From positions 186,001 to 250,000 of the forward strand of contig NZ_BBQM01000012.1 of the NCBI RefSeq assembly GCF_000876015.1: 64,000 bases of DNA, written 5' to 3'. This document shows positions 6,352-64,000 of this stretch, in pieces (position 1 is the first letter of the stretch; every line of letters begins with the position of its first letter). The notes beneath the pieces are model-generated. The model ran no database searches and was not told the DNA's origin. It saw only the letters and a program-made list of their open reading frames with translations. Made by a program: the position numbers and the translations under genes. This DNA comes from Cupriavidus basilensis (lineage in GTDB: Bacteria > Pseudomonadota > Gammaproteobacteria > Burkholderiales > Burkholderiaceae).

Positions 6352-7347
6352 ATGTTCATGCAGTCGCTTTTCCGTCACCGCGCGCAGCAGGGCGCCCTGC
6401 TGCTGGCGCTGGCCCTTGGCGCGGCCGCCGCGCCGGCCGCCGCCGCGGACTATCCGGACCGCCCGGTGCAACTGGTGCTGTCCTTCCCGCCTTCGGGCGC
6501 CACCGACGTGCTGGCGCGCGCGGTGGGGCAACGCCTGTCCACCGTGCTCAAGCAGCCGGTGGTGGTGGACAACCGGCCCGGCGCGGGCGGTGCCATCGGC
6601 ATGAGCTATGCCGCCAAGGCCACGCCGGACGGCTACACGCTGTACCTGGCCGCCGTGAGCAACGCCGCCATCGCCGCGGCCACCTACAACAGCCAGCCGG
6701 CCAGCCTGAGCCGCGACTTCGTGCCGATCGCGGGCATCGGCACCGTGCCGCACATCCTGGTGGTGCCGGCCTCGCTGCCGGTGCACTCGGTGCCGGAACT
6801 GGTGAGCTACCTCAAGGCGGCGCCCGGCAAGTACAACTTCGCCTCGCAGGGCGCCGGCACGCTGTCGCACCTGGAGTCGGAACTGTTCAAGCTGCGCACC
6901 GGCGTGGACGTGGTGCACGTGCCGTACAAGGGCAGCTCGTTCGCGCTGCCGGACCTGATGGCCGGGCGCTCGAGCATGATGTTCGACAGCATCCCGGCGG
7001 CGCTGCCGCACGTGAAGTCGGGCAAGCTGCGGCTGCTGGCGGTGGCCTCCGAGCGCCGCGTGAGCTCGCTGCCGGACGCGCCCACCGTGGCCGAGTCGGG
7101 CATCCCCGATTTCCGCGCCGACAACCTGTTCGGCCTGGTGGCGCCCAAGGGTACGCCGCCGCAGGTGGTCAAGCAGCTCGCCGCCGCGATGAAGGACGTG
7201 CTGGCCTCGCCCGAACTGGGCGCGGCGATGGAAGCGCAGGGCGTGCAGATCAAGTACACCCCGCCCGAGCAGTTCGGCCGCATGATCGGCGACGAGATGC
7301 GCGCCTGGGAGAAGGTGGCGCGCGCCGCCAACGTGCGGATAGACTAG
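6352..7347 (+). CDS. Bug-family tripartite tricarboxylate transporter substrate-binding protein
   Basis: A 331-aa periplasmic binding protein. The signal peptide (basic start, hydrophobic run LLLALALGAAAAPAAAA) is followed by the hallmark YPDRPVQLVLSFPPSGATD. The Bug motifs for carboxylate binding (VVVDNRPGAGGAIG and TPDGYTL) are in place, and the ending YTPPEQFGRMIGDEMRAW is typical. Such proteins capture small organic acids for TctAB permeases or for signalling; no tctAB genes are nearby, which is common for the amplified Bug families of Burkholderiales. GGGAG lies upstream of the ATG. It is divergent from the LysR gene and followed by the GGT-like gene. Confidence 0.93.
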   Translation: MFMQSLFRHRAQQGALLLALALGAAAAPAAAADYPDRPVQLVLSFPPSGATDVLARAVGQRLSTVLKQPVVVDNRPGAGGAIGMSYAAKATPDGYTLYLAAVSNAAIAAATYNSQPASLSRDFVPIAGIGTVPHILVVPASLPVHSVPELVSYLKAAPGKYNFASQGAGTLSHLESELFKLRTGVDVVHVPYKGSSFALPDLMAGRSSMMFDSIPAALPHVKSGKLRLLAVASERRVSSLPDAPTVAESGIPDFRADNLFGLVAPKGTPPQVVKQLAAAMKDVLASPELGAAMEAQGVQIKYTPPEQFGRMIGDEMRAWEKVARAANVRID

Positions 7348-7426
7348 CGCGGCCATGCAGTGACGGGCTGGCGGGCTTGCCCGCGGGCCCGGGTTTGCCG
7401 GCAAGGCAGCTTGCCGCAGGTTGTTT

Positions 7427-7549
7427 CCCTCTTCCGCGCGCGGAAGAGGGGCAGGGGGAGCGGGCCGGCGCCGCCACGCAGCGGACGCCTTCGGCGTTCG
7501 CCGGCGCGGCGCCCGCTCCCGACCCTTCTCCCGCCGCATCGGGGAAGGG
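7427..7549. repeat. Structured intergenic element with nested palindromes
   Basis: Between the Bug receptor and GGT genes lies a perfect 24-bp palindrome at 7427-7450 (half-site CCCTCTTCCGCG). At 7523-7549 there is an imperfect hairpin of CCCTTCTCCC/GGGGAAGGG type. A further pair, GGAGCGGGC near 7457 and GCCCGCTCC near 7511, could close a long stem around the GC-rich centre. It looks like a REP-like mobile intergenic repeat rather than a simple terminator; only a genome-wide search can show copy number. Confidence 0.55.
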
Positions 7550-7648
7550 CGCAGGTCGCGGGCGGCGCGGGCCTTGCCGGTATGGGCCTGCCCGCCCGAT
7601 TTTCTCAATTCCCACGCGCCGCCCAGCGGACGCGAAGCATTCCTCGCC

Positions 7649-9241
7649 ATGAACAATTTCTGGAATTTCCCCTATCCTTCGCAGCGCGTGCCGGTCCTGG
7701 CCGACAACGTGGTGGCCACCTCGCAGCCGCTGGCGGCCGCGGCCGGCTTGCGCATGCTGGCGCGCGGCGGCAACGCCGTGGACGCGGCGCTGGCCACGGC
7801 CATCGCGCTGACCGTGGTCGAGCCGTGCATGAACGGGATCGGCGGCGATGCCTTCGCGCTGATCTGGGACGGCAAGGAACTGCACGGCCTGAACGCCAGC
7901 GGCCGCGCGCCCGCGGCGTGGACGCCGGAATATTTCTCGCGCTACGACAGCATGCCGCCCAACGGCTGGGACGCCGTGACCGTGCCGGGCGCCGTCTCGG
8001 GCTGGCGCGCCACCTGGGAAAAGTTCGGCAGCCTGCCGTTCGCCGACCTGTTCGAGCCGGCGCTGGAATACGCGCGCAACGGCTTCCTGGTGTCGCACAC
8101 GGTGCACCGCCAGTGGCAGGCGCAGGTGCCGGTGCTGATCGACAAGCCGGGCTTCGCCGAGGCCTTCGCCCCCAACGGCCGCGCGCCGCTGCCGGGCGAG
8201 CGCTTCATCTGCGAGGGCCAGGCGCGCACGCTGGCGCGCATCGCCGAGAGCAAGGGCGACGACTTCTATCACGGCGAGCTCGCGGCCAGCATCGCCGCGC
8301 ACGCGCGCGCCACCGGCGGGCTGATCACCGAGGCCGACCTGGCCGCGCACCGCGCCGACTGGGTGCAGCCGATCAGCACGGCCTACCGCGATCTGGAGCT
8401 GTTCGAGATCGGCCCGAACGGGCAGGGCATCGGCGCGCTGATGGCGCTGGGCATGCTGGAGCAGTTCGACGTGGCCGGCGCGGGCGTGGACTCGGCCGAG
8501 GCCATCCACCTGCAGGTCGAGGCCATGAAGCTGGCCTTCGCCGACCTGCACGCCTACGTGGGCGATCCCGCGGCGATGCACGAGGTGCAGGCCGCGCACC
8601 TGCTGGACCGCGGCTACCTGGCCAGCCGCGCCAAAGCCATCGACCCGGAGCGCGCCGGCAACCCCGGCCCGGGCAAGCCGCACAGCGGCGGCACGGTCTA
8701 CCTGACCGTGGCGGACCGCAACGGCATGATGGTTTCGTACATCCAGTCCAACTTCAAGGGCTTCGGCTCCGGCGTGGTGGTGCCCGGCACCGGCATCGCC
8801 CTGCACAACCGCGGCTGGGGCTTCAACCTCAAGCCGGGCCACCCCAACCAGGTCAGCCCGGGCAAGCGGCCGTTCCACACCATCATCCCCGGTTTCCTGA
8901 TGCGCCAGGGCAAGCCGCTGGCCGGCTTCGGCGTGATGGGCGGCTCCATGCAGGCCCAGGGCCACGTGCAGATGACCAGCCGGCTGGCCGACTTCGGCCA
9001 GAACCCGCAGGCCGCGTGCGACGGCCCGCGCTGGCGCGTGCTGGACGACAACAGCACCGTCGCGGTGGAATGGAACTGCCCGGAAGCCACCGTGGCCGGG
9101 CTGCGCGCGCGCGGCCACAAGGTGGAGGTGGCTCCGCGCGGCAACCTGGAGTTCGGCGGCGCGCAGATCGCCATGCGGCTCGACAGCGGCTACGCGGCCG
9201 CGTCGGATCACCGCAAGGACGGCTACCCGGTCGGTTTCTGA
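7649..9241 (+). CDS. Gamma-glutamyltransferase family protein (Ntn hydrolase)
   Basis: 530 aa from ATG 7649. The GGT-family opening (ATSQPLAAAAGLRMLARGGNA, split by position) and NGIGGDAF are clear. The autoprocessing/nucleophile region reads SGGTVYLTVADRNG, so Thr349 aligns with the catalytic Thr that is freed by self-cleavage. I see no obvious signal peptide; the enzyme may be cytoplasmic, as in the YwrD-like branch that acts on cephalosporin- or glutathione-like gamma-glutamyl or acyl amides. No good Shine-Dalgarno sequence precedes the start. The exact substrate is not predictable. It follows the Bug receptor on the same strand after the structured repeat, so co-transcription is doubtful. 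Confidence 0.88.
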   Translation: MNNFWNFPYPSQRVPVLADNVVATSQPLAAAAGLRMLARGGNAVDAALATAIALTVVEPCMNGIGGDAFALIWDGKELHGLNASGRAPAAWTPEYFSRYDSMPPNGWDAVTVPGAVSGWRATWEKFGSLPFADLFEPALEYARNGFLVSHTVHRQWQAQVPVLIDKPGFAEAFAPNGRAPLPGERFICEGQARTLARIAESKGDDFYHGELAASIAAHARATGGLITEADLAAHRADWVQPISTAYRDLELFEIGPNGQGIGALMALGMLEQFDVAGAGVDSAEAIHLQVEAMKLAFADLHAYVGDPAAMHEVQAAHLLDRGYLASRAKAIDPERAGNPGPGKPHSGGTVYLTVADRNGMMVSYIQSNFKGFGSGVVVPGTGIALHNRGWGFNLKPGHPNQVSPGKRPFHTIIPGFLMRQGKPLAGFGVMGGSMQAQGHVQMTSRLADFGQNPQAACDGPRWRVLDDNSTVAVEWNCPEATVAGLRARGHKVEVAPRGNLEFGGAQIAMRLDSGYAAASDHRKDGYPVGF

Positions 9242-9364
9242 TACCGGGCTGCCGTTTGCGCGGCGGCGGAAAAATAGTCGGGTGTGTGGGTTGGGACACA
9301 TCAAACAGCCGGAACCGGGGCATAGACTGAAGGCGTCCTTTTTGCCAGCCAAGGAGAGGTCGCC

Positions 9365-9586
9365 ATGGAAACGCTCCGGTCCCGCCGCCTGCTCGATCGT
9401 GTTTCGCCGGCCGTGCTGGCCGACCTGCGCCGGATGCAGGCGGCCACCGAATGGGCCCGGGCGCTGGCTGCCGCCGGCCGCGCGCCGGTGGACGCGGCGG
9501 GCGAGGGCTTCGAGTTCGCCCGCTACGATCCGGGATTGCGCGGCTTCGTACTGCTCAGGCTGCGCGGCGGGGTGCGCGACGCCTGA
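9365..9586 (+). CDS. Small hypothetical protein
   Basis: A 73-aa protein (starts METLRSRRLLDRVSP), helical and Arg/Ala-rich, with no signal peptide and no family that I recognise. A strong AAGGAGAG sits 7 bp before the ATG, which argues that it is translated. It stands between the GGT-like gene and the hopanoid promoter, on the same strand. Confidence 0.6.
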   Translation: METLRSRRLLDRVSPAVLADLRRMQAATEWARALAAAGRAPVDAAGEGFEFARYDPGLRGFVLLRLRGGVRDA

Positions 9587-9769
9587 CGCGGACAGGCATG
9601 GCGTCCCGCCCGCCGGCACGGCGGCGGGCGTCCCCGGGGTCTCTTCCTTCCTGTGCCTTCCCGGCCGCATTTCCGGCTCCGCCACGGCGAGCCGGCCTCC
9701 AGGCGCCAGGCGCCCGCGCCACCCCGGGTTCACCCGGCTGCGCCTCGCCCGGCCCTGTGCGGCGCGCCT

Positions 9770-9778
9770 TGCTATAAT
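9770..9778 (+). promoter_or_regulatory. Extended -10 promoter of hpnD
   Basis: TGC-TATAAT is a perfect -10 hexamer with a TGn extension; there is no recognisable -35 box at the expected spacing. Transcription would begin near 9785, giving a leader of about 85 nt before the GTG start at 9871. The shc gene has a very similar element (10803-10811). Confidence 0.6.
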
Positions 9779-9870
9779 CCCGAATTACCCAAAAATCATG
9801 CCGCCCCGGCCGCGCGCATGCCTTTGCCCGCGCTTTGCCGGCAACGGCGGCGGCGAGGGTGGTTCAATGC

Positions 9871-10737
9871 GTGACGGGGAGTTACGTGGCCGGAACCGAT
9901 ATCGCAGTGCAAGACGTCCCACCCAGCGCGGGCAATCCCGTTTCGACCGGCAGCTCGTTCCATGCCGCCATGAAGATCCTGCCTGCCGCGCAGCGGGAGG
10001 CGATGTTCGAGATCTACGCCTTCTGCCGGCAGGTGGACGATATTGCCGACGGCGACGGCCCGCGCCCGCAGCGCCTGGCCGGGCTGGACGCCTGGCGCGC
10101 CGACCTGGCCGCCTGCTATGCGGGCACGCCGCCGCCGGCGCTGCGCCGGCTGCACGCGCAGATCGTGCGCTACGGCCTGCTGCAGGAGGATTTCCTGGCG
10201 GTGGTCGACGGCATGGCGATGGACGTGCTGGCCGACATCCGCGCGCCGGACGCGGCCACGCTGGACCTGTACTGCGACCGCGTGGCGAGCGCCGTCGGGC
10301 GGCTTGCCGTGCGCGTGTTCGGCATGGAGCGCGAGGCCGGCGTGGCGCTGGCGCATCACCTGGGCCGCGCGCTGCAGCTGACCAACATCCTGCGCGACAT
10401 CGACGAGGATGCCGGGCTGGGCCGCGTCTACCTGCCGGCCGAGGCGCTGGCCGGGGCCGGCGTGCCGCCGGGCGCGCCCGAGGCCATCGTCGGCCATCCC
10501 GCGGTGGGCCGCGCCTGCCTGGAAGTGGCGGGGCAGGCCCAGGCGCACTATGACAAGGCGTTCGCCATCATGGCGGACGCCCCGCGCCGCGTGGTGCGCT
10601 CGCCGCGCATCATGGGCGAGGTCTACCACGTGGTGCTGCAGCGCCTGCTGGCGCGCGGCTGGGCCAACCCGCGCGAGCGGGTGCGGGTGCCGCGCGCGCG
10701 GGCGCTCTGGATCCTGTTGCGGCACGGCTTCGTCTGA
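9871..10737 (+). CDS. hpnD: Presqualene diphosphate synthase HpnD
   Basis: Joins two farnesyl diphosphates into presqualene diphosphate, the first committed step to squalene and hopanoids. The squalene/phytoene synthase signatures are present: the first Asp-rich motif in FCRQVDDIADG and the second in LTNILRDIDEDAGLGRVYLP. About 288 aa from the GTG at 9871. The start is uncertain: an ATG at 9835 would add 12 residues, and later GTG codons are possible. It heads the hopanoid locus. HpnC and HpnE, which normally complete squalene formation, are not adjacent or elsewhere in the window. Confidence 0.92.
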   Translation: MTGSYVAGTDIAVQDVPPSAGNPVSTGSSFHAAMKILPAAQREAMFEIYAFCRQVDDIADGDGPRPQRLAGLDAWRADLAACYAGTPPPALRRLHAQIVRYGLLQEDFLAVVDGMAMDVLADIRAPDAATLDLYCDRVASAVGRLAVRVFGMEREAGVALAHHLGRALQLTNILRDIDEDAGLGRVYLPAEALAGAGVPPGAPEAIVGHPAVGRACLEVAGQAQAHYDKAFAIMADAPRRVVRSPRIMGEVYHVVLQRLLARGWANPRERVRVPRARALWILLRHGFV

Positions 10738-13691: not shown

Positions 13692-14582
13692 CTATTCCTT
13701 CTTGCCGTCCCCTTCGGGGGCTTTCTCCGCGCCGCCGGCCGGCGGCGGCACCGGCTCGGCCGTGGCGTCGGCAGGCGCGGCGGATGTGGCGGATGTGGCG
13801 GGCGCGGTAGCCGGCGTGCCGGGCGCGGCCGGGGCGGCGTCCGCCGGCGCCTCGTCGTCGTCATACTGCGGCAGCTTGCCGCCACCGCCGTCGATCAGGT
13901 ACTGGCGCCGCTGCAGGTAGGCATCGCGCACGAAGCTGTAGCGGTCCAGCGCCGCCAGCGCCAGCAGGTCGGTCGCGCCCAGCGCGTTGGTGCGGGCATC
14001 GAGGAAGCCCAGGAAATACATGCCGTAGCGATAGTCCTGGTCGATCCAGGTGGTCGGCGAGATCTGGAGATTCACGTACAGGCCGACGCCGTCGCGGATC
14101 GAGCTCGGGCCGAACAGCGGCAGCACCAGGTAGGGGCCCGACGGGATGCCCCACACGCCCAGGGTCAGGCCGAAATCCTGCGAATGCTTGCCCAGGCCGG
14201 CCGGCGTGGCGATGTCGATCAGGCCGCCGATGCCCAGCGTCGAATTGATGGCGATGCGCATGAAGCTCTCGGCCGCGTCCACGCCCTTGCCCTGCAGCAG
14301 GTTGTTGACGAAATTGCCGACGTCGCCGATGTTCGAGTAGAAATTGGTCACCGCCGTGCGCACCGGCTGCGGCGTGACGGCGCGGTAGCCCTTGGCCAGC
14401 GGCGTCGCCACGTATTCGTCGAGCTTGTCGTTGACCGTGAACACGGCGCGGTTGAACGGCTCGATGGGGTCGGCCGGGCTGGCCTGCGGGCCGCTGGCGC
14501 AGGCCGTGGCCAGCAGCGCGAGGGACAGCGCGGACAGGAGCCGCGCCAGGCGGCTGGATCGGGAATCGGGGCGGTGGGTCAT
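13692..14582 (-). CDS. mlaA: MlaA/VacJ-family outer-membrane lipoprotein
   Basis: A 296-aa lipoprotein with a type II signal peptide and lipobox LLATAC (Cys near residue 28). The mature part has the MlaA core (DPIEPFNRAVFTVNDKLDEY, GPSSIRDGVG, RYSFVRDAYLQRRQ). The last 60 residues are an Ala/Pro/Asp-rich tail rarely seen in E. coli MlaA. MlaA forms an outer-membrane channel for lipid movement with the periplasmic carrier MlaC. Here it lies 13 bp downstream of hpnN and near hpnM (MlaC-like), so this set probably moves hopanoids or phospholipids between membranes. Confidence 0.93.
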   Translation of the reverse strand: MTHRPDSRSSRLARLLSALSLALLATACASGPQASPADPIEPFNRAVFTVNDKLDEYVATPLAKGYRAVTPQPVRTAVTNFYSNIGDVGNFVNNLLQGKGVDAAESFMRIAINSTLGIGGLIDIATPAGLGKHSQDFGLTLGVWGIPSGPYLVLPLFGPSSIRDGVGLYVNLQISPTTWIDQDYRYGMYFLGFLDARTNALGATDLLALAALDRYSFVRDAYLQRRQYLIDGGGGKLPQYDDDEAPADAAPAAPGTPATAPATSATSAAPADATAEPVPPPAGGAEKAPEGDGKKE

Positions 14583-14595
14583 GGTTGGCGGAGGT

Positions 14596-17268
14596 TCATT
14601 GGGCCAGTTTCTTGGCTGACTTGGCGCGTTCGCGCGGCTTGCCCATCAGGATCGGCTGGAAGAAGACGGCGCCGGCCAGCGTGCACACCAGCGCCAGCGC
14701 CAGCAGCTTGCCCATGCTGGCGGTGCCGGGATGCTGGGACAGCCACAGGCTGCCGAAGGCGGTGGCGGTGGTGGCCGCGCTGAACAGCACGGCGTGGGTC
14801 AGCGGCGACTGCAGCAGGTGCGTCTTGCCCTGGCGCCACGCCAGCACGTAGTAGATCTTGAACGCCACGCCGATGCCGAACAGCAGCGGCAGGGCGATCA
14901 CGTTGGCGAAGTTGAGCGGGATGCCGAACACCGCGCACAGCTCCAGCGTCAGCAGCGCCGACACCAGCAGCGGCACCAGCGTGCGCAGCACGTCGCCCAC
15001 GCGGCGCAGCGTGATCCACAGCAGCAGCGTGATCGACAGCACGGCCCACACGCCGGCGTGGGCGAAGGCGGTCATGATGGTGTCGGCCGAGCCGCGGATC
15101 GAGATCGGGCCGCCCACGGCGCCCGGCGCGACGCGCTGCACGGCGTCGATGAAGCGCTTGAGCGCGGCGTCGCGCAGCTCGCTGTCGCGGCTGGAGGCGT
15201 CGGCGTCGCCGGGCTTGGCCGCGGCGGGCAGTTTGGGGCTGACGCTGATCAGCGCCTGGCCGTCCGGAGCCACCCAGTCGCGCGCCAGCGCGGGCGGCAG
15301 CGCGGCCTGCGTGATCGGCTGCGGCGACAGCATGCGCTGCAGGCGCGCCAGCGCCAGGCGCAGCGGCAGCGCGATGGCCTGCTCGGCGCGGTCGCGCGTG
15401 GCGGCATCGGCGGCGGCGAGCTTGCGCAGCGAGGCGGCCAGGTGCGCCGCTTCCGCCGCGCCCGGGCCGGGATGGTCCTCGGCGGCCAGCGCGAGCTGGC
15501 GCGCGGCGTTCTTGAGCGAGTTGACGCGGCGCTCGTCGTTGGCCGGCGTGGCCACGGCCTGCGTCAGCACCGGCAGCAGGCTGGTGGCGGCGTCGGCGAT
15601 CAGTTCGAGCCTGGCCGGCTGGTCGTCGGGGATGAAGGTCTGCAGCGTGACCACGCGCGCCACTTCCGGCAGCGCGGCGAGGCGGTCGGCGGTGGCCCGC
15701 GCGGCGTCCAGCGACGGCGCCAGCACGTTGACGTTGTCGGTGCCGGCCTGGGGCGCGTCCTTGAGCGAGAGCAGCGTGGCCATCGATTCGGAATGCGGGT
15801 CCTTCAGGTGCAGCGGATCGAAGTCGAAGCGCAGGTGCAGCAGCAGCGGCAGGCCGGCGAGGATCACGCCGAGCGTGGCGATCAGCACCTGGGTGCGGTA
15901 GCGCTCGAAGAAGGCATCGGCCGGCGCCAGCCACTTGAAGCCCGGCACGTCGACGCGGCCGGTCTCGTCCTTCGGGCGCATCACGGTGATCAGCGCCGGC
16001 AGCAGCGTGATGGTGGTGCTGAATGCCACCAGCATGCCCACGCCGGCGATCTTGCCCAGCTCCGCCACGCCGCGGTAGTCGGTCGGCAGGAAGCAGAAGA
16101 AGGCGGCCGCGGTGGCCGTGGAGGCCAGCGCGAGCGGCACGCCGACCGCCTTGGCGGTGCTGGCGAGCGCGTCGGGAATGTGCGGGTACGTGTGGCGCTC
16201 GGCACGGTAGCGCACGCCGAACTGGATGCCGAAGTCCACCCCCAGGCCGACGAACAGCACGGCGAAGGCGACCGAGATCATGTTGAGCGCGCCCACCATC
16301 GCCAGGCCCAGCGCGGCGGTGATGGCCAGGCCCGCCAGCAGGCTGGCCAGCACGGCCAGGATCAGCCGCTTGGAGCGCAGCGCCAGCCACAGGATCAGGA
16401 TCACGACCACCAGCGTGAGCATGCCGTTTACTGCCGCGCCTTGCTTGACCGAGGCGAACTCGTCGTCGGCCAGGGCCTGCGAGCCGGTCAGGTGCACGCT
16501 GGCGCCGTAGCGCTCGTCGAGGCCGAGCTTGAGCGCGGCGGTGCGGATGGCCTCGGCGGCACCGGCGCCGGCCTGGAGGTCGGCGTAGTCCAGCACCGGG
16601 CTGAGGGCGACGAAGGACATCGCCTCCGCGCCGGGCGCCGGCTGCTGGCTGGCGTCCACCAGCCCGGTCCAGGACAGCGCGCCCGGCTTGCCGGCCAGCG
16701 CCTGGTCGACGGCGGCCGCGCTGCTGCCGAGCAGCCTGGTCATGTCGGCGAGCTTGACCTGGCCCAGTTGCAGCGGCAGCGACAGCGTGGTGGTGAGGGT
16801 GTCGGACAGGCCGCGCAGGGTCGGGTCGTGCGCCAGCGCGTTGAGCAGCGGGCGCGCCTGCTTGAGCTGCGAGGTCACGTCGCGCAGCTTGGCGGTGTCG
16901 ACGAAGAGCAGGCCGTTGCGTTCGAAGAAATCGCCGCCGCCGGGCTGGCTGACGGCGCGAAAGCGCGCGGTGTCCTGCGCCAGCGCGCCGGCCAGCTCGT
17001 CGGCGGCGGCATCGGCCAGCTCGGGCGCCGGCGCGCGCACCACCGCCAGGATCATCTGGTCGCGCTGCGGGAAGGCGGCGCTGACCGCGGCATCGCGCTT
17101 GGCCCACGGCTGGTCCGACTCCAGCAGGCGGCTGATGTCGGTGTTGATGGCGAAATGCAGGGCGACATAGATGCCGCTGGCGATGGTCAGCAACAGCGCA
17201 AGCGCGATCACGGGCCACGCGCGGCGGGTGGAGAACTTGACGATGCGAATGACCGACGACGTCATCAT
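14596..17268 (-). CDS. hpnN: Hopanoid RND-type transporter HpnN
   Basis: About 890 aa, MMPL/RND fold: a transmembrane helix at residues 14-35, a large periplasmic domain, a block of five or six helices (about 260-450), a second periplasmic domain and a second helix block near the C-terminus. HpnN is known in Rhodopseudomonas and Burkholderia to carry hopanoids to the outer membrane. The start is set at 17268, where [18 protein letters not shown] matches the family N-terminus; the open frame further upstream is Arg/Pro-rich non-coding sequence. mlaA follows 13 bp later in one operon. It is divergent from hpnM. Confidence 0.94.
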
Positions 17269-56519: not shown

Positions 56520-57827
56520 TCACGCCGGTCCGGGCCGCGCCAGCGGCAGGGTCGCCAGCCGTTCCAGCACCACGGCGCGCATGCCCGCCGGCGCCGGCAA
56601 CTGTTCCAGCAGCGCGGGCCAGCGCTCGTGCGCCATCGCCACCGCGTCTTTCGCGGCGGCGGTGGCGATGCGCTCGGCAACCCTGGCCGCGCGCGCGAAC
56701 TCGCGGTAGGTCTGCAGGGTCTGCGCGCGCTGCTGGCGGTCGATGGCGACGTTCTGGCCGAAGCCGGCAAAGCCCGGCAGGGCGGCCACGCTGACGATGT
56801 CGTAGGCCGGCGACAGCTCGGCGGCGATGCCGTTGCGGTACAGGAACGAGAAGTTCCTGAGATGGGCGTCGCTGTTGCCCAGCAGCGTGTTGACGGCCTG
56901 GCGGATGAAGAACTGGCGCACGTCCTCGATGCCGCGCACGCTCAGGCGCTCCAGCAGTTGCACCAGCGCGGCGTAGGCCTCGGGGCCGGCGTACTTGCGG
57001 CTGGGCATGCGCGTGAGCACCTGGCAGCCGTCCTCGGCATGCACGCGGCCGCCCGGCTCGCGGTCGAAGCGGTCCACGGCGAGGAAATGCAGGCCGGCGC
57101 CGAGCGCCTCGGGCAGGCCTTCCACCTCGATGGCGGCCAGCGGCACCGGCCGGCACGGCGCCACCGCCACGCCGGCGGCCTGCGCCAGCTGCATGGCGGC
57201 GTACTCGTTGAAGACCTGGCTGTCGTCGTTGCGCGCGGGCAGCTTGGCGATCAGGTCGGAGAGGCGCCCGTGCGTGGGCAGCGTGTAGCGCCTGCCGGCC
57301 TGCGCGGTGGACAGCGCGAGCTTGTTCTGCACGCCCGAGACCGAGGCCGCGCCTTCGGTGGCGCCTTCGATCACGGCGATCTCGAGGTTGTCGGCGCCGC
57401 CGGTCACGCCCACGGTGCGCACGTGCCCGGGCAGCGTGTCGAGCGGGGCCGGGCGTATCACCACGGCGCCGGGCAGGTCGTCGCCGGCGGCGGCCAGGAT
57501 GCCGAAGTCGTCGCGGTCCCCGGCGTGCTGGCGGGTGGCTTCCAGGCGCCTGCGCAGCTCGCTCTCGGGCAGCAGCCCGGCGAAGTAGGGCGGCAAGGCG
57601 CCGTTGGTGTTGTAGAGCGCCGGATGGAACGGGTTGGAGAGCACGGTGGCGGTCAGCGCCTCGTTGCCGGGGAAGGTCAGCGACAGGCTCAGCGTGGGCC
57701 GCAGCGGATCGCCGCGGAACGCTTCGGCCGGCACGAAGCGGCAGGTGCGCTCGACCTCGCACAGATGCCCGCACAGCACGCCGTGCAGATGGACTTCGAG
57801 GTAGCGGGGCCGCAGGCCGGGGCTCAC
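56520..57827 (-). CDS. hipA: HipA-family toxin kinase
   Basis: 435-aa Ser/Thr kinase toxin that in E. coli phosphorylates GltX and induces persistence. The autophosphorylation loop SVSGVQNKLAL carries Ser164, matching E. coli Ser150 in SIAGAQEKTA. Catalytic and metal motifs NSDAHLRNFS (Asp320, Asn325) and AYDIVS (Asp343) are intact, so the kinase should be active. The GTG start at 57827 overlaps the antitoxin stop as GTGA, so it is translationally coupled to HipB. Confidence 0.92.
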   Translation of the reverse strand: MSPGLRPRYLEVHLHGVLCGHLCEVERTCRFVPAEAFRGDPLRPTLSLSLTFPGNEALTATVLSNPFHPALYNTNGALPPYFAGLLPESELRRRLEATRQHAGDRDDFGILAAAGDDLPGAVVIRPAPLDTLPGHVRTVGVTGGADNLEIAVIEGATEGAASVSGVQNKLALSTAQAGRRYTLPTHGRLSDLIAKLPARNDDSQVFNEYAAMQLAQAAGVAVAPCRPVPLAAIEVEGLPEALGAGLHFLAVDRFDREPGGRVHAEDGCQVLTRMPSRKYAGPEAYAALVQLLERLSVRGIEDVRQFFIRQAVNTLLGNSDAHLRNFSFLYRNGIAAELSPAYDIVSVAALPGFAGFGQNVAIDRQQRAQTLQTYREFARAARVAERIATAAAKDAVAMAHERWPALLEQLPAPAGMRAVVLERLATLPLARPGPA

Positions 57828-58117
57828 GGCTGCGGCTCCAGGAACATTTCCACCGAGGTGCGGGCGTCGCGGTCGGGCCCGCTGTCCTTGCCTTCGAGCA
57901 GGCGCCGCACCGCCAGCAGGTGCTCGCGCGGCACCAGCACCCATTCCGCGTCGAGCGCGGCGCCGATGGCCTCCAGCGTGGAGGCGCGCACGTCGCTCCT
58001 GCCGCTCAGCGCGGTGGTCAGGTTCGATGGCGCCATGCCGATCAGGCGTGCCACCTCGGCCAGGGAAGCCTTGCGCGCGGCGCGGCGCGCCTGCAACTGT
58101 GCTTGGAATGATGCCAT
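57824..58117 (-). CDS. hipB: HipB-like antitoxin (XRE-type HTH)
   Basis: 97-aa DNA-binding antitoxin. The HTH is at residues 18-60 (SLAEVARLIGMAPSNLTTALSGRSD in segments), with a C-terminal tail ending EMFLEPQP that may reach into HipA. First gene of the leftward hipBA operon. No clear Shine-Dalgarno sequence precedes the ATG, while the promoter region upstream is AT-rich and full of CATAG repeats, the expected self-regulating operator. Confidence 0.88.
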   Translation of the reverse strand: MASFQAQLQARRAARKASLAEVARLIGMAPSNLTTALSGRSDVRASTLEAIGAALDAEWVLVPREHLLAVRRLLEGKDSGPDRDARTSVEMFLEPQP

Positions 58118-58415: not shown

Positions 58416-60035
58416 CTACGCCGCGCGGCCGTGCACGGCCGGCTGGCCCGGCGCCCGGCGGAAGACCCCGAGCTCGTCCGGCGCGCACTGCGCGATCAGC
58501 CCGGTTTCCCACGCCAGATAGGCGCGCGCCGCCTCGTGGTTGCCCTCGTGGCGGTCGTGCACGAAGAACAGGAAGTCGATGCGCGCCGCCGCCGGCAGCG
58601 GTGCCGGCCGCACCGCCTGGGGCAGGCCCGCGGCCAGCCAGGTGTCGTAGCCCTGCGCCAGCCGGTACACATGGGTGTAGCCCTCGGCGAGCAGGTCGTT
58701 GCCGGCCAGGCTGGCAACGCGCGGGTCGGCGGCGATCAGGATGACCGGCCGGCCCGGCTCGGCGCCGAGCTCGCCGAGCGTGCGCGGCAGGCGCGGGCGG
58801 ATCGACCAGACCGCGCCGTCGGCGTGGCCGCGCCCGTAGGCGGCGCTGTCGCGCAGGTCGATCGCGATGGCGTCGGGCGCCTCGGCATGCAGCGCGCGCA
58901 GCAGGCTGGCGTCGAGCACCGGCAGCTTGCGGGCGGACAGGGGCCGCGGCGGCGCGCTCACCTTGAGCGCCGCGTCGACGCCGTCGGCCAGCACCGCGCT
59001 TTCGTAGCCCAGCTGGTACAGCCAGCTTGCCACCACCGGCGCGCGCACGCCGTCGTCGTCGAACACGATCACGCGCGCGCCGCGCACGCCGACGTACTGG
59101 TCGGTGGCCTGGATCAACTGGCCGCCGGGCGCATGCGTGGCGCCGTCGATGGTGCCCGCGGCGAATTCCTCGGCGGTGCGGATGTCGAGCAGGAAGGTGG
59201 TGCGCCCAGCATCGTCGAGCCATTGCTGGGCCTGCGTGGCCGACAGCGCGGGCAGGCCGAAGCGCAGCAGCAGCCGCGCCGAGCGCGCGCGCGCCGCGGC
59301 CAGCGCGGCGGCATCCGGCGCCGGCGGATAGCGGCGCTGGCTGCCGTGCTCCAGCGCGTGGCCCGCGAGATACCAGCCCTGGGTGCCGTTCTCCAGCGCC
59401 AGCACCGGGTTCGGCAGGCCGAGGTTGCGCAGGGTCTGGGCGCCGATGATGCTGCGCGTGCGGCCCGCGCAGTGCACCACCACGGTGGTCCGCGCGTCGG
59501 GCACCAGCGCGTCCAGGCGCAGCGCCAGCTCGCCGTTGGGCAGGCTGCTGGCGCCGGGGATCGTCATCTTCTGGTGCTCTTCGAAGGTGCGGCCGTCCAC
59601 CAGCACCAGCCTCTCGCCGGCCGCGCGCCGCGCCACCAGTTGGTCCGCGCTCAGGCGCGGCGTGTGGTGCCAGTGCTCGACCAGTTCGCCGAAGGTCTTG
59701 GAGGGCACGTTGACGCCCTTGAACAGCGTATAGCCGGCCGTGGCCCAGGCCGGCGCGCCGCCCGCGAGCAGGGTCACGTCGCCGTAACCGAGCTGCGCCA
59801 GCCGCTGCGCGGCGCGCGTGGCCACGCCGTCGCCGTCGTCGAGCAGCACGATGCGCTCGGTCAGGCGCGGCGCCAGGCGCCCGACGTCCAGCTCCAGCCG
59901 GCTATAGGGCAGCGGCACGGCGAAGAACGGATGGCCTTCGCCATACTGGCCGTGCTCGCGCACGTCGAACAGCGCCAGGGGCTGGCCGTCGTTGAGCCAG
60001 CCGCGCAGCGTGGCGGCATCGATGGATCGGGTCAT
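58416..60035 (-). CDS. Four-domain rhodanese-like protein (paralogue A)
   Basis: 539 aa with four consecutive rhodanese domains (about 5-105, 125-235, 255-365, 385-495) and no signal peptide. Only domain 2 has a catalytic Cys, C189, in the loop CAGRTR; the corresponding loops of domains 1, 3 and 4 carry Asp or Ala instead (LLDDGDG, VFDDDGV, IAADPRV). Rhodaneses move sulfane sulfur between thiols and acceptors. The C-terminal tail (AARAYLAWETGL) is shared with paralogue B. AGGAG precedes the ATG. Transcribed after the cupin dioxygenase gene (33-bp gap). Confidence 0.92.
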   Translation of the reverse strand: MTRSIDAATLRGWLNDGQPLALFDVREHGQYGEGHPFFAVPLPYSRLELDVGRLAPRLTERIVLLDDGDGVATRAAQRLAQLGYGDVTLLAGGAPAWATAGYTLFKGVNVPSKTFGELVEHWHHTPRLSADQLVARRAAGERLVLVDGRTFEEHQKMTIPGASSLPNGELALRLDALVPDARTTVVVHCAGRTRSIIGAQTLRNLGLPNPVLALENGTQGWYLAGHALEHGSQRRYPPAPDAAALAAARARSARLLLRFGLPALSATQAQQWLDDAGRTTFLLDIRTAEEFAAGTIDGATHAPGGQLIQATDQYVGVRGARVIVFDDDGVRAPVVASWLYQLGYESAVLADGVDAALKVSAPPRPLSARKLPVLDASLLRALHAEAPDAIAIDLRDSAAYGRGHADGAVWSIRPRLPRTLGELGAEPGRPVILIAADPRVASLAGNDLLAEGYTHVYRLAQGYDTWLAAGLPQAVRPAPLPAAARIDFLFFVHDRHEGNHEAARAYLAWETGLIAQCAPDELGVFRRAPGQPAVHGRAA

Positions 60036-60068
60036 GGCGGGCTCCTGGGGGCTGGGATGGACGGCGCT

Positions 60069-60683
60069 TCAGGCCGCGGCCTGGGCCGGGACCTGTTCGC
60101 TGCGGTTCATCTGGGTGGTGTTGTAGTTGACGATGCGGCCGGTCTCTGGCTCGATGCCGATGCGCCCGGTCAGCGCTTCCAGCGGGCGGCCGTAGAGGTG
60201 GAAATGCAGCGTGGGTGCGTCGCCCACCACGTGGATGCTGTGGATGTCCTGCGGCAGGAAGGCGATCGGCGCGCCGGGACGCACCACCTGCTCGCGCTCC
60301 AGCGCCAGCGCGGCGCGGGCGGGATCGCTGCCGTCGTCGGTGCGGCGGTAGACGCGGTTCAGCTCGTCGCCCTGCACGGCCACGATCACCGCCCAGGTGT
60401 CGTGGTTGTGCGGGATGGTCTTCTTGCCGGGAACGATGGAGTTCAGGTACAGCGCCGGCAACTGGCCTTCCTCGCTCAGGCGGTAGCGCGTGGAGGTGGC
60501 GGTGCCGTCGGCGGGCGGCGGGAAATCGGCGAAGCCGAACAACGCCTTCTTGTCGGCCAGCGCCTGCAGGGCGTGGGTCACGCGCTCGAGCGTGGCGCGG
60601 TCCACGTCGCGCTGGCTGGTGAGGGCGCGGACTTCGGCAAGGGTGGTGGCGACGGCGGCGCTGCGCTGGCTCTGGATGGTCAT
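60069..60683 (-). CDS. Cysteine dioxygenase-family cupin (thiol dioxygenase)
   Basis: 204 aa. Metal-binding cupin with His92 and His94 in PHNHDTWAVI and a third ligand in QDIHSIH (His148 or His151), the three-His iron site of thiol dioxygenases such as cysteine dioxygenase and 3-mercaptopropionate dioxygenase. The start at 60683 follows GAGGA at a slightly long spacing. Divergent from the aminotransferase and followed by rhodanese paralogue A. It probably oxidises a thiol to a sulfinate; the thiol is not determined. Confidence 0.87.
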   Translation of the reverse strand: MTIQSQRSAAVATTLAEVRALTSQRDVDRATLERVTHALQALADKKALFGFADFPPPADGTATSTRYRLSEEGQLPALYLNSIVPGKKTIPHNHDTWAVIVAVQGDELNRVYRRTDDGSDPARAALALEREQVVRPGAPIAFLPQDIHSIHVVGDAPTLHFHLYGRPLEALTGRIGIEPETGRIVNYNTTQMNRSEQVPAQAAA

Positions 60684-60941
60684 CTGGGGGAATCCTCGTT
60701 CTGATCGGCAGGCCTCCACTCTACGGAGTGCGCGGCGGCGGCTGAAAGAACAATATCGCCGATGCATATGCGGTTTTGCCGCCAGGCCCCAGTCGGGCGG
60801 GTGCCGCGCTTCGCATTTCCAATGGCGGAAAGATTCGTTGCCGCGGCGCCTGCCCGGCTCTTAGAGTTGGGCGCAAGCCGGTCCGGGCAAGCCCCGGGGG
60901 CCAGCCATTGCCGGGCCCCGTTCCCGGAACGGAGACCGCAC
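60684..60941. other. Divergent promoter region of the thiol cluster
   Basis: 258 bp between the leftward cupin operon and the rightward aminotransferase operon. The part 60740-60775 (AAGAACAATATCGCCGATGCATATGC) is the least GC-rich and probably carries both promoters; no exact hexamers can be fixed. Confidence 0.35.
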
Positions 60942-62162
60942 ATGAGCCAGACCCTGCACGAACGCCTGCAACCCTATCCCACGGAGAAACTGGCGGCGCT
61001 GGCGGCACAGACGCCGCTGCGCACCAGCCTGCCGCCGATCAGCTTCAGCTGGGGCGAGCCGCGCCATGCCACGCCGCGCTTCATCGAGGAAGCGCTGGCG
61101 CGGCACGCCGGCGAGATCGGCCGCTATCCCAAGGTGCCCGGCAGCGACGCGCTGCGCGAGGCCATCGCCGCCTGGATCGCGCGCCGCCACGGCGTGGGCG
61201 ACCTGGACCCGGCGCGCGAGATCGTGCCGGTCAACGGCGCCAAGGACGGGCTGTTCAGCCTGGCGCAGGCCGTGCTGGGCGCCAGCCGCCCGCGCGAGGG
61301 CGCGCCGGTGGTGCTGGTCAGCAATCCCGGCTACCAGGTGTACGAGGGCGCGGCGCTGCTGGCCGGCGCCGAGCCTTATTACATCGACACCGCGCGCGGG
61401 CTGGTGGCCGCGCTGGACGCGGTGCCCGCCGAGGTCTGGCCGCGCGTGCGGCTGTGCTACCTGTGCTCGCCGGACAATCCGTCCGGGCGCGTCTATCCGC
61501 TGGAAGACTGGGCCCACGTGCTGGCGCTGTCCGAGCGCCACGGCTTCCACGTGGTCTCCGATGAGTGCTACTCCGAACTGTATTTCGACGAGGCCGCGCC
61601 GCCGCTCGGCGCGCTGGCCGCCGCGCAGGCGCTGGGCCGGGACCGCCGCCGCCTGCTGGCGGTGGCCAGCCTGTCCAAGCGCTCCAACGCGCCCGGCCTG
61701 CGCTCCGGTTTCGTCGCCGGCGACGCCGACGTGCTGGCGCGGCTGCGCCAGTACCGCAGCTATTCCGGCGGCGTGCTGAACCCGGCCGTGCAGGGCGCCA
61801 GCCTCGCCGCGTGGCGCGACGAGGCGCACGTGGTGGAGAACCGCCGCCTGTACCGCGAGAAGTTCGATTTCGCCGTGCCGCGCCTGCGTCAGGTGGCGCG
61901 GCTGGAAGCGCCGCAGGCGGGCTTCTTCGCGTGGCTCGACATCCGCGCCAGCGGGCTGGACGACGTGGCTTTCACGCGCCTGCTGCTGGCCGAGCAGAAC
62001 CTCGCCGTGGTGCCCGGCACCTTCCTCGCGCGCACGGTCGACGGCCACAACCCCGGCGTGGGCCATGTCCGCATCGCGCTGGTCGCCAGCCCCGAGGAAT
62101 GCGCGCAGGGCGTGGAACGCCTCGTGAGCCTGCTGCGCGGGTTGCAGCCGGCCGCTGCCTGA
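60942..62162 (+). CDS. DapC-like PLP-dependent aminotransferase
   Basis: 406-aa fold-type I aminotransferase. Substrate loop SFSWGEPRHATPRFI, NGAKDGLF, cofactor residues in CSPDNPSGRVY and SDECYSELY, and the PLP-lysine motif SLSKRSNAPGLRSGF, which is typical of succinyldiaminopimelate aminotransferase DapC. However, dapC normally lies with dapD/dapE; here its neighbours are thiol enzymes, so a sulfur amino acid substrate is possible (inference). ACGGAGACC precedes the ATG. Confidence 0.85.
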   Translation: MSQTLHERLQPYPTEKLAALAAQTPLRTSLPPISFSWGEPRHATPRFIEEALARHAGEIGRYPKVPGSDALREAIAAWIARRHGVGDLDPAREIVPVNGAKDGLFSLAQAVLGASRPREGAPVVLVSNPGYQVYEGAALLAGAEPYYIDTARGLVAALDAVPAEVWPRVRLCYLCSPDNPSGRVYPLEDWAHVLALSERHGFHVVSDECYSELYFDEAAPPLGALAAAQALGRDRRRLLAVASLSKRSNAPGLRSGFVAGDADVLARLRQYRSYSGGVLNPAVQGASLAAWRDEAHVVENRRLYREKFDFAVPRLRQVARLEAPQAGFFAWLDIRASGLDDVAFTRLLLAEQNLAVVPGTFLARTVDGHNPGVGHVRIALVASPEECAQGVERLVSLLRGLQPAAA

Positions 62163-62220
62163 GCGCGCGCGGCTCGTTGCCGCCTTGCCGTATCCGACGA
62201 TCTCCTTTTTCTTCCCCGCC

Positions 62221-63903
62221 ATGACCATCACCGACCTGACCCAGACCTTTGCCGACGACCCCGCCGCCGCGCGCGCGGACCATCCGCGGGTAAGCCCGGC
62301 CGCGCTCAAGGACGCCATCGCCGGCGGCGGCGAGCTGGCCGTGCTGGACGCGCGCGAGGAGGGCGCCTTCTCACGCGCGCACCTGCTGTTCGCCGTGCCC
62401 GCGCCGCTGGGCCGGCTCGAAACCGTGATCGACCGCCTGGTGCCGCGCCGGAACACGCCCATCGTGGTGACGGACCTGGCCGAGGACCTCGCCCACGCCG
62501 CCGCCGGCAAGCTGCTGCGCTTCGGCTACACCGACGTCTCGGTGCTGGCCGGCGGCACGCGCGCGTGGCAGGCCGCCGGGTACGAAGTGTTCAGCGGCAC
62601 CAACGTGCCCAGCAAGGCCTTCGGCGAAGTCATCGAGCACGAGCTGCACACGCCGTGGATCACCGCCGAGGCGCTGCGCCTGCACCAGCAGCGCGGCGAC
62701 AACGTGGTGGTGGTGGACAGCCGCCCGTTCAGCGAATTCCAGAACATGAGCATTCCCGGCGCGGTGGACTGCCCCGGCGCCGAGCTGGTCTACCGCATCG
62801 GCGAGATCGCGCCCGACCCGGACACGCTGGTGGTGGTCAACTGCGCGGGCCGCACGCGCAGCATCGTCGGCGCGCAGACGCTGATCAACGCCGGCATTCC
62901 CAACCGCGTGGTGTCGCTCAAGGACGGCACGATGGCATGGCTGCTGGCCGGCTACGCGCTCGACCACGGCCAGACCCGCTTCGCCCCGCAGCCCGGCGAC
63001 GCCGCGCAGGCCACGGCGCGCGAGCGCGCCGCCCGCGTGGCCGGACGCGCCGGCGTGCGGCACATCGACGCCGCGCAACTGGCCGCGTTCGAGCAGCAGG
63101 CGCACGAGCGCACGCTGTACCGCTTCGACGTGCGCTCGCCCGAGGAATACGCCGCCGGCCACCTGCCGGGCTGGCGCAGCGCGCCCGGCGGGCAGCTGGT
63201 GCAGGCCACCGACGCCTATGCCGGCACCCGCCGCGCCCGCATCGTGCTGGCCGACTGGGACGGCGTGCGCGCGCAGACCACGGCGGCATGGCTGGCCCAG
63301 TTCAGCGGGCACGAAGTGTTCCTGTTCCGCGCCGATCCGCTCGCCGCGCGCGAGGCCGGGCCCGAGCCTGTGCGCGTGCTGCGCACCTCGGCCGCCGAGG
63401 CGCCGTGGATCGAGGCGGCTTCGCTGTCCGCGCTGCAGGCGCGCGGCGGCGTGACGGTGGCCGACGTCGACAGCAGCCTGGCCTTCCGCCGCGGCCACAT
63501 TCCCGGCGCCTGGTTCGCCACGCCGGAAAAGGCGGCGCTGGTGCTGGACCACGCCGGCCCGGCCGACGTGATCGTCGTCACCTCCGCCGACGGCGTGCTG
63601 GCGCAGGTGGTGGCCGCGGCGCTGCGCCACGCCAGCGCGCGCGACGTGCGCGCGCTGCTCGGCGGCAACGCGCGCTGGCAGGCGCTGGGGCTGCCGGCCG
63701 AAGCCGCGCCGGCCGGCTCCGCCGCCGCCGCGCGCGTGCTGACCGGCGACGAGGATGCCTGGTACAGCGCCTACGCCTACGAAGACGAAGGCCGGCGCAA
63801 GGCCGAGATGCATGCCTACCTGAACTGGGAAATCGGGCTGGTGGACCAGCTCGGGCGCGATGGCGATCTGGCGGTGAAGCTGGTGGACTATCGCAAGGCC
63901 TGA
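62221..63903 (+). CDS. Four-domain rhodanese-like protein (paralogue B)
   Basis: 560 aa, same four-domain plan as paralogue A with several conserved blocks, e.g. NVPSKxFGE and CAGRTRSI(I/V)GAQTL. Again only domain 2 has the active Cys (C208); other loops carry Asp, Trp or Ser (VVTDLAED, LADWDGVR, VVTSADGV). The C-terminus has an extra conserved tail, MHAYLNWEIGLVDQ. No SD sequence: the leader is pyrimidine-rich (TCCTTTTTCTTCC), like that of surE. 58 bp after the aminotransferase, so one operon. Confidence 0.92.
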   Translation: MTITDLTQTFADDPAAARADHPRVSPAALKDAIAGGGELAVLDAREEGAFSRAHLLFAVPAPLGRLETVIDRLVPRRNTPIVVTDLAEDLAHAAAGKLLRFGYTDVSVLAGGTRAWQAAGYEVFSGTNVPSKAFGEVIEHELHTPWITAEALRLHQQRGDNVVVVDSRPFSEFQNMSIPGAVDCPGAELVYRIGEIAPDPDTLVVVNCAGRTRSIVGAQTLINAGIPNRVVSLKDGTMAWLLAGYALDHGQTRFAPQPGDAAQATARERAARVAGRAGVRHIDAAQLAAFEQQAHERTLYRFDVRSPEEYAAGHLPGWRSAPGGQLVQATDAYAGTRRARIVLADWDGVRAQTTAAWLAQFSGHEVFLFRADPLAAREAGPEPVRVLRTSAAEAPWIEAASLSALQARGGVTVADVDSSLAFRRGHIPGAWFATPEKAALVLDHAGPADVIVVTSADGVLAQVVAAALRHASARDVRALLGGNARWQALGLPAEAAPAGSAAAARVLTGDEDAWYSAYAYEDEGRRKAEMHAYLNWEIGLVDQLGRDGDLAVKLVDYRKA

Positions 63904-63934: not shown

Positions 63935-64000
63935 TCACCGCAACGAAATCCCCGAAGCCGCGATCACCGCCGCATAGCGCGGCATGTCCTTCGACAGCGT
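63935..64000 (-). CDS. C-terminus of a probable Bug-family receptor (partial)
   Basis: The last 21 codons of a leftward gene that continues beyond the window: TLSKDMPRYAAVIAASGISL plus Arg and a TGA stop. The helix followed by GI(S/K) ending is the usual tail of Bug/TctC periplasmic receptors (compare the one at 6352-7347). The call rests on this short stretch only. Confidence 0.5.
   Translation of the reverse strand, partial: TLSKDMPRYAAVIAASGISLR

What the first reader, a model, noticed from the sequence alone, without database searches (positions are those of the whole stretch)
58416..63903. Twin four-domain rhodaneses around a thiol dioxygenase and an aminotransferase: candidate sulfur pathway
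Two divergent operons (cupin dioxygenase + rhodanese A; DapC-like aminotransferase + rhodanese B) form a near-symmetric cluster. Both rhodaneses have four domains but only one catalytic Cys each (C189, C208, in an identical CAGRTRSI loop) and share an unusual C-terminal tail (AYLxWExGL). The enzymes can be arranged as a thiol pathway: an aminotransferase making a mercapto-keto acid, a dioxygenase making a sulfinate, and rhodaneses handling the released sulfane sulfur. The three inactive domains may be scaffolds or sensors.
Basis: partly seen in the sequence, partly recalled or inferred. Interest (0 to 1): 0.7.

Follow-up and report, generated by a model that had tools for sequence, protein, structure and literature searches.

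The report
Thiol dioxygenase–rhodanese sulfur gene cluster
A bacterium carries a known kind of gene cluster for breaking down sulfur-containing organic acids, in an unusual version with two large rhodaneses and a repurposed aminotransferase; fused versions in relatives suggest that the dioxygenase and the rhodanese work as one unit.

Summary
The four genes are as described. The dioxygenase–rhodanese link is real and partly in print: mercaptosuccinate and 3-mercaptopropionate dioxygenase genes sit beside rhodaneses. New here is how tight it is. In 120 sampled genomes of the family, 64 of 95 thiol dioxygenase genes have a four-domain rhodanese within 3 kb. Partner distances co-vary (Mantel r 0.90, 25 pairs). 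Fused dioxygenase–rhodanese proteins occur in three records of two types. The cluster runs past the window end into an amino-acid ABC importer and a cystathionine beta-lyase, also present in 12 of 14 loci with this cupin type. The 'twins' are not local duplicates: they lie on different main branches, and rhodanese B groups with two of the fusions. The aminotransferase is a DapC paralogue, not the main DapC: another copy beside a DapD-like gene keeps every conserved residue, this one changed 12 of 121. No DapC-type aminotransferase was found in the 14 loci, but three of them and one fusion locus carry a different aminotransferase among the importer genes, so an aminotransferase step recurs. Best reading: a sulfur amino acid is imported and cleaved, the thiol is oxidised to sulfinate, and rhodanese handles sulfite or sulfane sulfur. 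Substrate unknown; every activity is inferred.

The parts
58416..60035 (-). Rhodanese A: four rhodanese domains, loop Cys C189 in domain 2 only, Asp at the matching place in domains 1 and 3, tail AYLAWETGL
   Evidence: (1yt8, E 1.3e-116)
60069..60683 (-). Cupin thiol dioxygenase (ORF open from 60767): PHNHDTW and DIHSIH iron-ligand motifs, HFHLY, Arg where 3MDO has Gln63
   Evidence: (8vni mercaptosuccinate dioxygenase, E 4.9e-41); no Pfam or NCBIfam family at 0.001
60684..60941 (.). Shared upstream region of the two divergent operons
   Evidence: sequence; promoters not tested
60942..62162 (+). DapC-derived PLP aminotransferase paralogue, diverged at 12 of 121 conserved DapC columns, PLP-lysine motif SLSKRSN kept
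62221..63903 (+). Rhodanese B: four rhodanese domains, loop Cys C208 from this ATG, tail AYLNWEIGL; groups with two cupin-rhodanese fusions
63935..64000 (-). End of a TctC/Bug-type receptor gene (L009 5936-6943), cut by the window end. Beyond it (L009): SBP 7056-8054, permease about 8090-8791, permease 8787-9593, ATPase 9580-10437, cystathionine beta-lyase to 11671

Best explanation
A catabolic or sulfur-acquisition cluster for an imported sulfur amino acid or thioether. Steps: (1) an amino-acid ABC importer, just past the window end, brings in the substrate (inferred from family). (2) A cystathionine beta-lyase-like PLP enzyme, with the DapC-derived aminotransferase acting at an alpha carbon of the substrate or of a product, yields a small carboxylated thiol (inferred). 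(3) The cupin dioxygenase oxidises the thiol with O2 to a sulfinate (inferred from 8vni homology and iron ligands). (4) The sulfinate gives sulfite, as in mercaptosuccinate breakdown (published for relatives). (5) A rhodanese persulfide in domain 2 takes up the sulfite as thiosulfate or passes sulfane sulfur on (inferred). What is shown by computation: the cupin and the four-domain rhodanese are often neighbours, co-diverge and are sometimes fused; the importer and lyase belong to the cluster; an aminotransferase recurs in some clusters but from different branches; rhodanese B and this DapC-derived aminotransferase are lineage-specific additions.
For: Adjacency: 25 of 28 window/Msdo-type cupins and 39 of 67 3MDO-like cupins have a four-domain rhodanese within 3 kb; 65 of 98 rhodaneses have such a cupin (coordinates). 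Fusions: G107 745 aa and Cupriavidus necator C39 740 aa, cupin plus B-type rhodanese; G016 772-aa frame, cupin 62.8% identical to 4qma plus rhodanese 68% identical to 1yt8. Partner distances: Mantel r 0.899, 0 of 20000 permutations reach it, 25 pairs. Importer and lyase in 12 of 14 other loci of this cupin type; own lyase over the TIGR01324 cut-off, 398.6 vs 365.9. Aminotransferase: 12 of 121 conserved columns changed, against at most 4 in any of 110 relatives and 0 in the own DapC; aminotransferases of another branch sit just before the first permease in L211, L227, L232 and L233, the last three 65-73% identical to the L211 one. Published relatives: Msdo clustered with lyase and rhodanese, in Advenella also with PAAT importer and LysR (PMC5373536).
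Against: Seven of the 14 other loci show no A-type rhodanese in the stretch read (one is cut by a contig end), and 33 of 98 rhodaneses have no listed thiol dioxygenase within 3 kb, so neither strictly needs the other. The P. protegens tst deletion had no significant effect on 3-MPA (PMC12947264). No DapC-type aminotransferase in the other loci. The Mantel test is not corrected for species descent, and the nearest-partner agreement is only 11 of 25. The cupin tree does not resolve the window-type cupins as one clade. No LysR hit in window 40000-64000 or L009, unlike the Advenella Msdo cluster. Substrate not identified.
Confidence: 0.6

Rival explanations
1. A plain mercaptosuccinate (or other thiol-acid) dissimilation cluster: the cupin is in effect a second mercaptosuccinate dioxygenase, the rhodanese only removes toxic sulfite, and rhodanese B and the aminotransferase are unrelated neighbours that happened to land here.
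For: 8vni is the only PDB hit at 0.001; Arg in place of Gln63 is shared with MSDO; the same cluster parts are in the published Msdo clusters; no DapC-type aminotransferase in the 14 other loci.
Against: The genome has another module (C51:645447) whose cupin is in one group with 8vni (100/100) and lies next to a LysR-like gene; the window cupin is outside that group and 42% identical to it. Aminotransferases recur among the importer genes in four other loci. A B-type rhodanese also lies near the A-type one in G108 (L208).
Confidence: 0.2
2. One reading: an aminotransferase makes a mercapto-keto acid, then the cupin and the rhodaneses process it.
For: The aminotransferase is a diverged DapC paralogue not needed as DapC. 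Aspartate-transaminase-like enzymes sit among the importer genes in L211, L227, L232 and L233, and C. necator C39 has Ldh_2 and FAD-oxidase genes there, so chemistry at an alpha carbon recurs.
Against: No DapC-type gene in the other loci; a beta-lyase is a more direct source of a thiol; most loci of this cupin type (11 of 14) show no aminotransferase in the stretch read.
Confidence: 0.15
3. The four-domain rhodanese is a persulfide carrier or an assembly or repair factor for the dioxygenase (for example donating sulfane sulfur to a thiol to make a persulfide substrate) rather than a sulfite scavenger.
For: Fusion and co-divergence fit any direct partnership. Domain 3 keeps an invariant Asp and Arg in its loop, which suggests a kept binding role.
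Against: Many cupins have no rhodanese nearby (28 of 67 3MDO-like), so it does not look required for dioxygenase function.
Confidence: 0.12

Closest known systems
Mercaptosuccinate dioxygenase (Msdo) cluster of Advenella mimigardefordensis and Variovorax paradoxus B4 (PMC5373536)
   Same: Cupin thiol dioxygenase, rhodanese-related sulfurtransferase and cystathionine beta-lyase together in both; PAAT amino-acid ABC importer and LysR in Advenella
   Different: Window cupin is outside the 8vni group; no LysR found beside it; an extra rhodanese from another branch, and a DapC-derived aminotransferase
3-mercaptopropionate dioxygenase + thiosulfate sulfurtransferase pair of pseudomonads (PA2602/PA2603; P. 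protegens c14110/c14100, PMC12947264)
   Same: Thiol dioxygenase followed by a sulfurtransferase gene as a probable transcription unit; four-domain, one-loop-Cys architecture as in 1yt8 (that 1yt8 is PA2603 is recalled)
   Different: Window cupin has Arg, not Gln, at the Gln63 place; rhodaneses are on other branches; larger cluster
Persulfide dioxygenase-rhodanese fusions (Paraburkholderia phytofirmans PpPDO, S. aureus type III PDO; PMC6060420, passages)
   Same: Iron dioxygenase fused to a rhodanese, as in the cupin-rhodanese fusions found here
   Different: There the dioxygenase is a metallo-beta-lactamase fold with a rhodanese domain; here it is a cupin with four rhodanese domains, and unfused in the window
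DapC, N-succinyl-diaminopimelate aminotransferase (TIGR03538; 3jtx)
   Same: Whole-length homologue, just over the NCBIfam cut-off (483.8 vs 474.6)
   Different: 12 of 121 conserved columns changed; not beside a DapD-like gene; the likely true DapC is elsewhere

Membership tests
Cupin thiol dioxygenase (CDO/3MDO/MSDO) | Three-His iron site and the His-x-Tyr motif in a cupin fold | tested here: met
   PHNHDTW, DIHSIH and HFHLY align with MSDO and 3MDO; 8vni E 4.9e-41. Sequence only; no Pfam/NCBIfam hit at 0.001
Cupin thiol dioxygenase (CDO/3MDO/MSDO) | O2-dependent thiol oxidation to sulfinate | not testable with these tools
   needs enzyme assay
Mercaptosuccinate dioxygenase | Groups with 8vni in a tree | tested here: not met
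   Own-genome Cup10 is in one group with 8vni (100/100); the window cupin is outside it, in an unresolved fork
Mercaptosuccinate dioxygenase cluster | Adjacent LysR regulator, lyase, rhodanese, PAAT importer | tested here: inconclusive
   Lyase, importer and rhodanese present; no LysR hit by tblastn in window 40000-64000 or L009
Four-domain thiosulfate sulfurtransferase (1yt8 type) | Four rhodanese domains with the loop Cys in domain 2, YLxWE tail | tested here: met
Four-domain thiosulfate sulfurtransferase (1yt8 type) | Sulfurtransferase activity | not testable with these tools
   assay needed; no activity data for these proteins seen
DapC | Conserved DapC residues and linkage to a DapD gene | tested here: not met
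   12 of 121 conserved columns changed; the C47 copy has 0 changes and is followed by a THDPS_N_2/hexapeptide (DapD-like) gene
Persulfide dioxygenase-rhodanese fusion | Metallo-beta-lactamase-fold dioxygenase fused to rhodanese | tested here: not met
   cupin homologue, separate genes in the window

The most novel reading that the evidence does not exclude
Cupin thiol dioxygenases and four-domain rhodaneses form one enzymatic unit (separate in most genomes, one polypeptide in some) that passes the sulfur of a thiol, through sulfinate or sulfite, to the rhodanese persulfide, as a counterpart of persulfide dioxygenase-rhodanese with an unrelated dioxygenase fold. Different dioxygenase types keep their own rhodanese type, and the Asp-bearing third domain is a second, non-sulfur-transfer site. 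In the window the unit has been combined with a repurposed DapC for a new sulfur amino acid, where relatives use an unrelated aminotransferase.
Probability: 0.3. Interest if true: 0.65.

Novelty: new variant of a known kind. Interest (0 to 1): 0.45.

Why it matters
What the rhodanese does beside thiol dioxygenase genes has been left open: in V. paradoxus it was tied only loosely to sulfite or cofactor handling (PMC5373536), and the P. protegens tst mutant was not pursued (PMC12947264). Fusions of two types and matched divergence of the partners make a direct coupling testable with one purified protein (the 740-745 aa fusion). The invariant Cys-less loop of the third domain and the diverged DapC paralogue give two further concrete targets.

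Tried and rejected
Considered and rejected: local duplication of the rhodaneses (A is 58% identical to the rhodanese of the C51:645447 module and 39% to B); aminotransferase as the essential DapC. The order survey with it (399 genomes, E <= 1e-135) found only the two copies of this genome, but that cut-off is too strict to exclude more distant paralogues. The family survey (120 genomes, E <= 1e-90) found a second copy only in G000 and G078. Plasmid hits of the aminotransferase (22 records, 12 shown) were mainly Pantoea dapC; not followed. Structure prediction was not run: 1yt8, 8vni and 3jtx already cover the proteins.

Counting limits: the gene caller is a GC3 heuristic. It also missed metC in L230 (annotation; 59% identity), the first permease in L009, and the cupin in L193 and L236, which are therefore not among the 25 Mantel pairs. 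Labels such as A-type or B-type are best blastp hits to window-genome proteins unless the tree is named. 'Window-type cupin' means best hit to the window cupin at 56-65% identity; the tree leaves them unresolved, and L206/L207/L209/L210 lean to the Msdo side (95/89). Of seven A-type rhodaneses, five group with rhodanese A (88/93); L204_4 and L210_9 do not. The Mantel pair 3uss/1yt8 rests on recall that 1yt8 is PA2603. Of five plasmid hits at 58% or more, four were fetched (H1, H2, H3, H5; not H4). Family and order surveys are even draws from larger groups.

Literature: passages and section 25 of PMC5373536; passages and section 17 of PMC12947264; passages of PMC6060420 and PMC8050391; PMC9765439 held no match in its main text. 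The rest were seen as listings only. In ten searches no listed title or abstract start, and no passage I read, describes a cupin thiol dioxygenase-rhodanese fusion; the listed papers were mostly not opened, subscription papers are mostly absent, and I recall that domain databases may list such architectures, so the fusion may already be known.
Full report
OBSERVATION. Pfam finds four Rhodanese stretches in each large protein, Aminotran_1_2 in the aminotransferase and nothing at 0.001 in the cupin. The cupin's only PDB hit at 0.001 is 8vni, mercaptosuccinate dioxygenase (E 4.9e-41). Both rhodaneses hit 1yt8, a thiosulfate sulfurtransferase, along nearly its whole length (E 1.3e-116; E 4.1e-125). 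The aminotransferase scores 483.8 against a cut-off of 474.6 for TIGR03538 DapC, and its best PDB hit is 3jtx.

THE CLUSTER IS LARGER THAN THE WINDOW. The window ends 97 bases after rhodanese B. The genome continues (L009) with a TctC/Bug-type receptor on the other strand, then an amino-acid ABC importer (binding protein with SBP_bac_3; two permeases, the first found by tblastn at 65% identity; an ATPase) and a cystathionine beta-lyase over its NCBIfam cut-off (398.6 vs 365.9). The ATPase's best NCBIfam model is the cystine importer TcyN, below its cut-off (285.4 vs 406). A tblastn with two LysR proteins of this genome finds none in window 40000-64000 or in L009.

OTHER MODULES IN THE SAME GENOME. 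The genome has two more modules of a related cupin and a four-domain rhodanese (C51:645447 and C38:62172), and a 3MDO-like cupin with no four-domain rhodanese match on its contig (C35:98365). The C51:645447 cupin is in one group with 8vni (100/100); the window cupin lies outside it in an unresolved fork. At the column of Gln63 of A. vinelandii 3MDO, 26 of 36 aligned cupins have Arg (window cupin and 8vni among them), 8 have Gln (the 3MDO-like ones) and the two fused cupins have Val. PMC8050391 names Gln63 as the distinguishing residue of Gln-type enzymes (passages). Substrates therefore probably differ; this is inference.

CONSERVATION OF THE PAIR. In 120 genomes drawn from the family, cupins of the window/Msdo type occur in 23 (28 places), 3MDO-like cupins in 62 (67 places), and four-domain rhodaneses in 65 (98 places). 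A rhodanese lies within 3 kb of 25 of 28 and 39 of 67 of these cupins; 65 of 98 rhodaneses are near such a cupin and 33 are not. For 25 adjacent or fused pairs, protein distances of cupin and rhodanese correlate with r 0.899, reached by 0 of 20000 permutations; the same nearest locus is found for only 11 of 25. This is not corrected for species descent. In favour of more than descent: paralogous pairs inside one genome separate on both trees (window genome: window pair against C51:645447 pair; G107: its Msdo-type pair against its fusion). The third own module (Cup11) is a long, unresolved branch.

FUSIONS. G107, of the window's genus, encodes one 745-aa protein with an N-terminal cupin and a B-type four-domain rhodanese (L211 8172-10409). 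C. necator C39 plasmid p1 has a 740-aa equivalent (L227). G016 has a 772-aa frame (about 726 aa from an inner Met) joining a cupin 62.8% identical to 4qma to a rhodanese 68% identical to 1yt8 (L243). The first two are one lineage (100/100). The third is of the other cupin and rhodanese type; that it arose separately is inferred, since G016 was not placed in the trees.

RHODANESES. In 40 aligned proteins the domain-2 loop CAGRTRSI is nearly invariant (Cys 40 of 40). Domain 3 has Asp in 40 of 40 at the matching place with Arg 40 of 40; domain 1 has Asp in 35 of 40; domain 4 is loose, with 10 of 40 having Cys at one column. Columns conserved at 95% or more: domain 2 core 24%, domain 3 21%, domain 1 17%, domain 4 4%, tail 15%. 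So domains 1 and 3 are Cys-less at the loop but not decayed. Rhodanese A groups with five partners of window-type cupins (88/93, below the strict mark); B groups with the two fusions and five others (100/99), one of which (L208) lies in a window-type cupin locus.

AMINOTRANSFERASE. The genome's better DapC (601 bits, C47:419443) is followed by a DapD-like gene and departs from none of the columns conserved in 110 DapC relatives. The window copy departs at 12 of 121, while the most among the relatives (left out one at a time) is 4 and the median 0. Changes include F14T, R101K, E102D, F130G and Y329F; the lysine motif SLSKRSN is kept. It is thus a diverged, probably active paralogue. In the 14 other loci of this cupin type a tblastn at 1e-8 finds no DapC-type gene, but hits at 27-32% in L227, L232 and L233, as in the fusion locus L211. 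These three are 65-73% identical to the L211 one and lie just before the first permease; the L211 one is aspartate-transaminase-like, below its cut-off (528 vs 617). So an aminotransferase recurs in the cluster, from another branch. C. necator C39 also has Ldh_2 and FAD-oxidase genes there.

NEIGHBOURHOOD COUNT. In 14 loci of window-type cupins (seven from the family survey, three from the order survey, four of five plasmid records), importer plus lyase are found in 12 (not L204, L234), an A-type rhodanese by best hit in seven, two separate four-domain rhodaneses in three (L204, L208, L230), a B-type by tree in two (L208; L227 as a fusion), and an aminotransferase in three. L232 is cut by a contig end right after the lyase. 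Elsewhere B-type rhodaneses lie beside luciferase-like monooxygenase or NMT1-type binding-protein genes (L205, L212, L213).

LITERATURE. PMC5373536 reports Msdo genes clustered with cystathionine beta-lyase and rhodanese, in Advenella also with a PAAT importer and a LysR regulator, and sulfinosuccinate decaying to succinate and sulfite. PMC12947264 reports 3mdo followed by tst in P. protegens, with no significant effect of the tst deletion on 3-MPA. Fusions of rhodanese with metallo-beta-lactamase-fold persulfide dioxygenase are known (PMC6060420 passages).

CONCLUSION. The finding is a real gene unit of a known kind in an unusual make-up. The coupling of thiol dioxygenase and four-domain rhodanese is well supported by genomics; its chemistry, the substrate, and the part of the aminotransferase and rhodanese B are not settled.

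Noticed in passing
L211 8172-10409(-); L227 about 14142-16364(-); L243 4620-6938(+): Natural fusions of a cupin thiol dioxygenase with a four-domain rhodanese, of two cupin/rhodanese types.
   Followed up: yes
L211 1837-3072(+); L227 5341-6555(+); L232 5639-6850(+); L233 12710-13927(-): An aspartate-transaminase-like aminotransferase just before the first importer permease, 65-73% identical to the L211 one; a different branch from the window's aminotransferase.
   Followed up: partly
G000:C51:645447-647792 (L010) and G000:C38:62172-65157 (L011): Two further cupin plus four-domain rhodanese modules in the same genome; the first has a LysR-like gene beside it and is the likely Msdo module.
   Followed up: partly
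L230 9031-14832 (Caballeronia sp. NK8 pNK83): Cupin, metC, two four-domain rhodaneses and a TauE/SafE-family gene (PF01925) next to each other, which hints at sulfite or a sulfonate as a product.
   Followed up: partly
L227 2718-5338: Ldh_2 and glycolate-oxidase-type FAD genes near the importer genes, suggesting 2-hydroxyacid chemistry in related clusters.
   Followed up: no
L205, L212, L213: B-type rhodaneses without a listed thiol dioxygenase within 3 kb, beside luciferase-like monooxygenase or NMT1-type binding-protein genes.
   Followed up: partly
L191 8389-9582 (G078): Another second DapC-like gene, beside a gene with Orn/DAP/Arg decarboxylase domains.
   Followed up: no
window 56520-57944(-): HipA-type protein (HipA_C and Couple_hipA) next to the cluster.
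   Followed up: no
Pantoea plasmids, hits H49-H56 and H58: Plasmid-borne dapC-annotated genes, several in onion isolates; a function outside lysine synthesis is possible.
   Followed up: no
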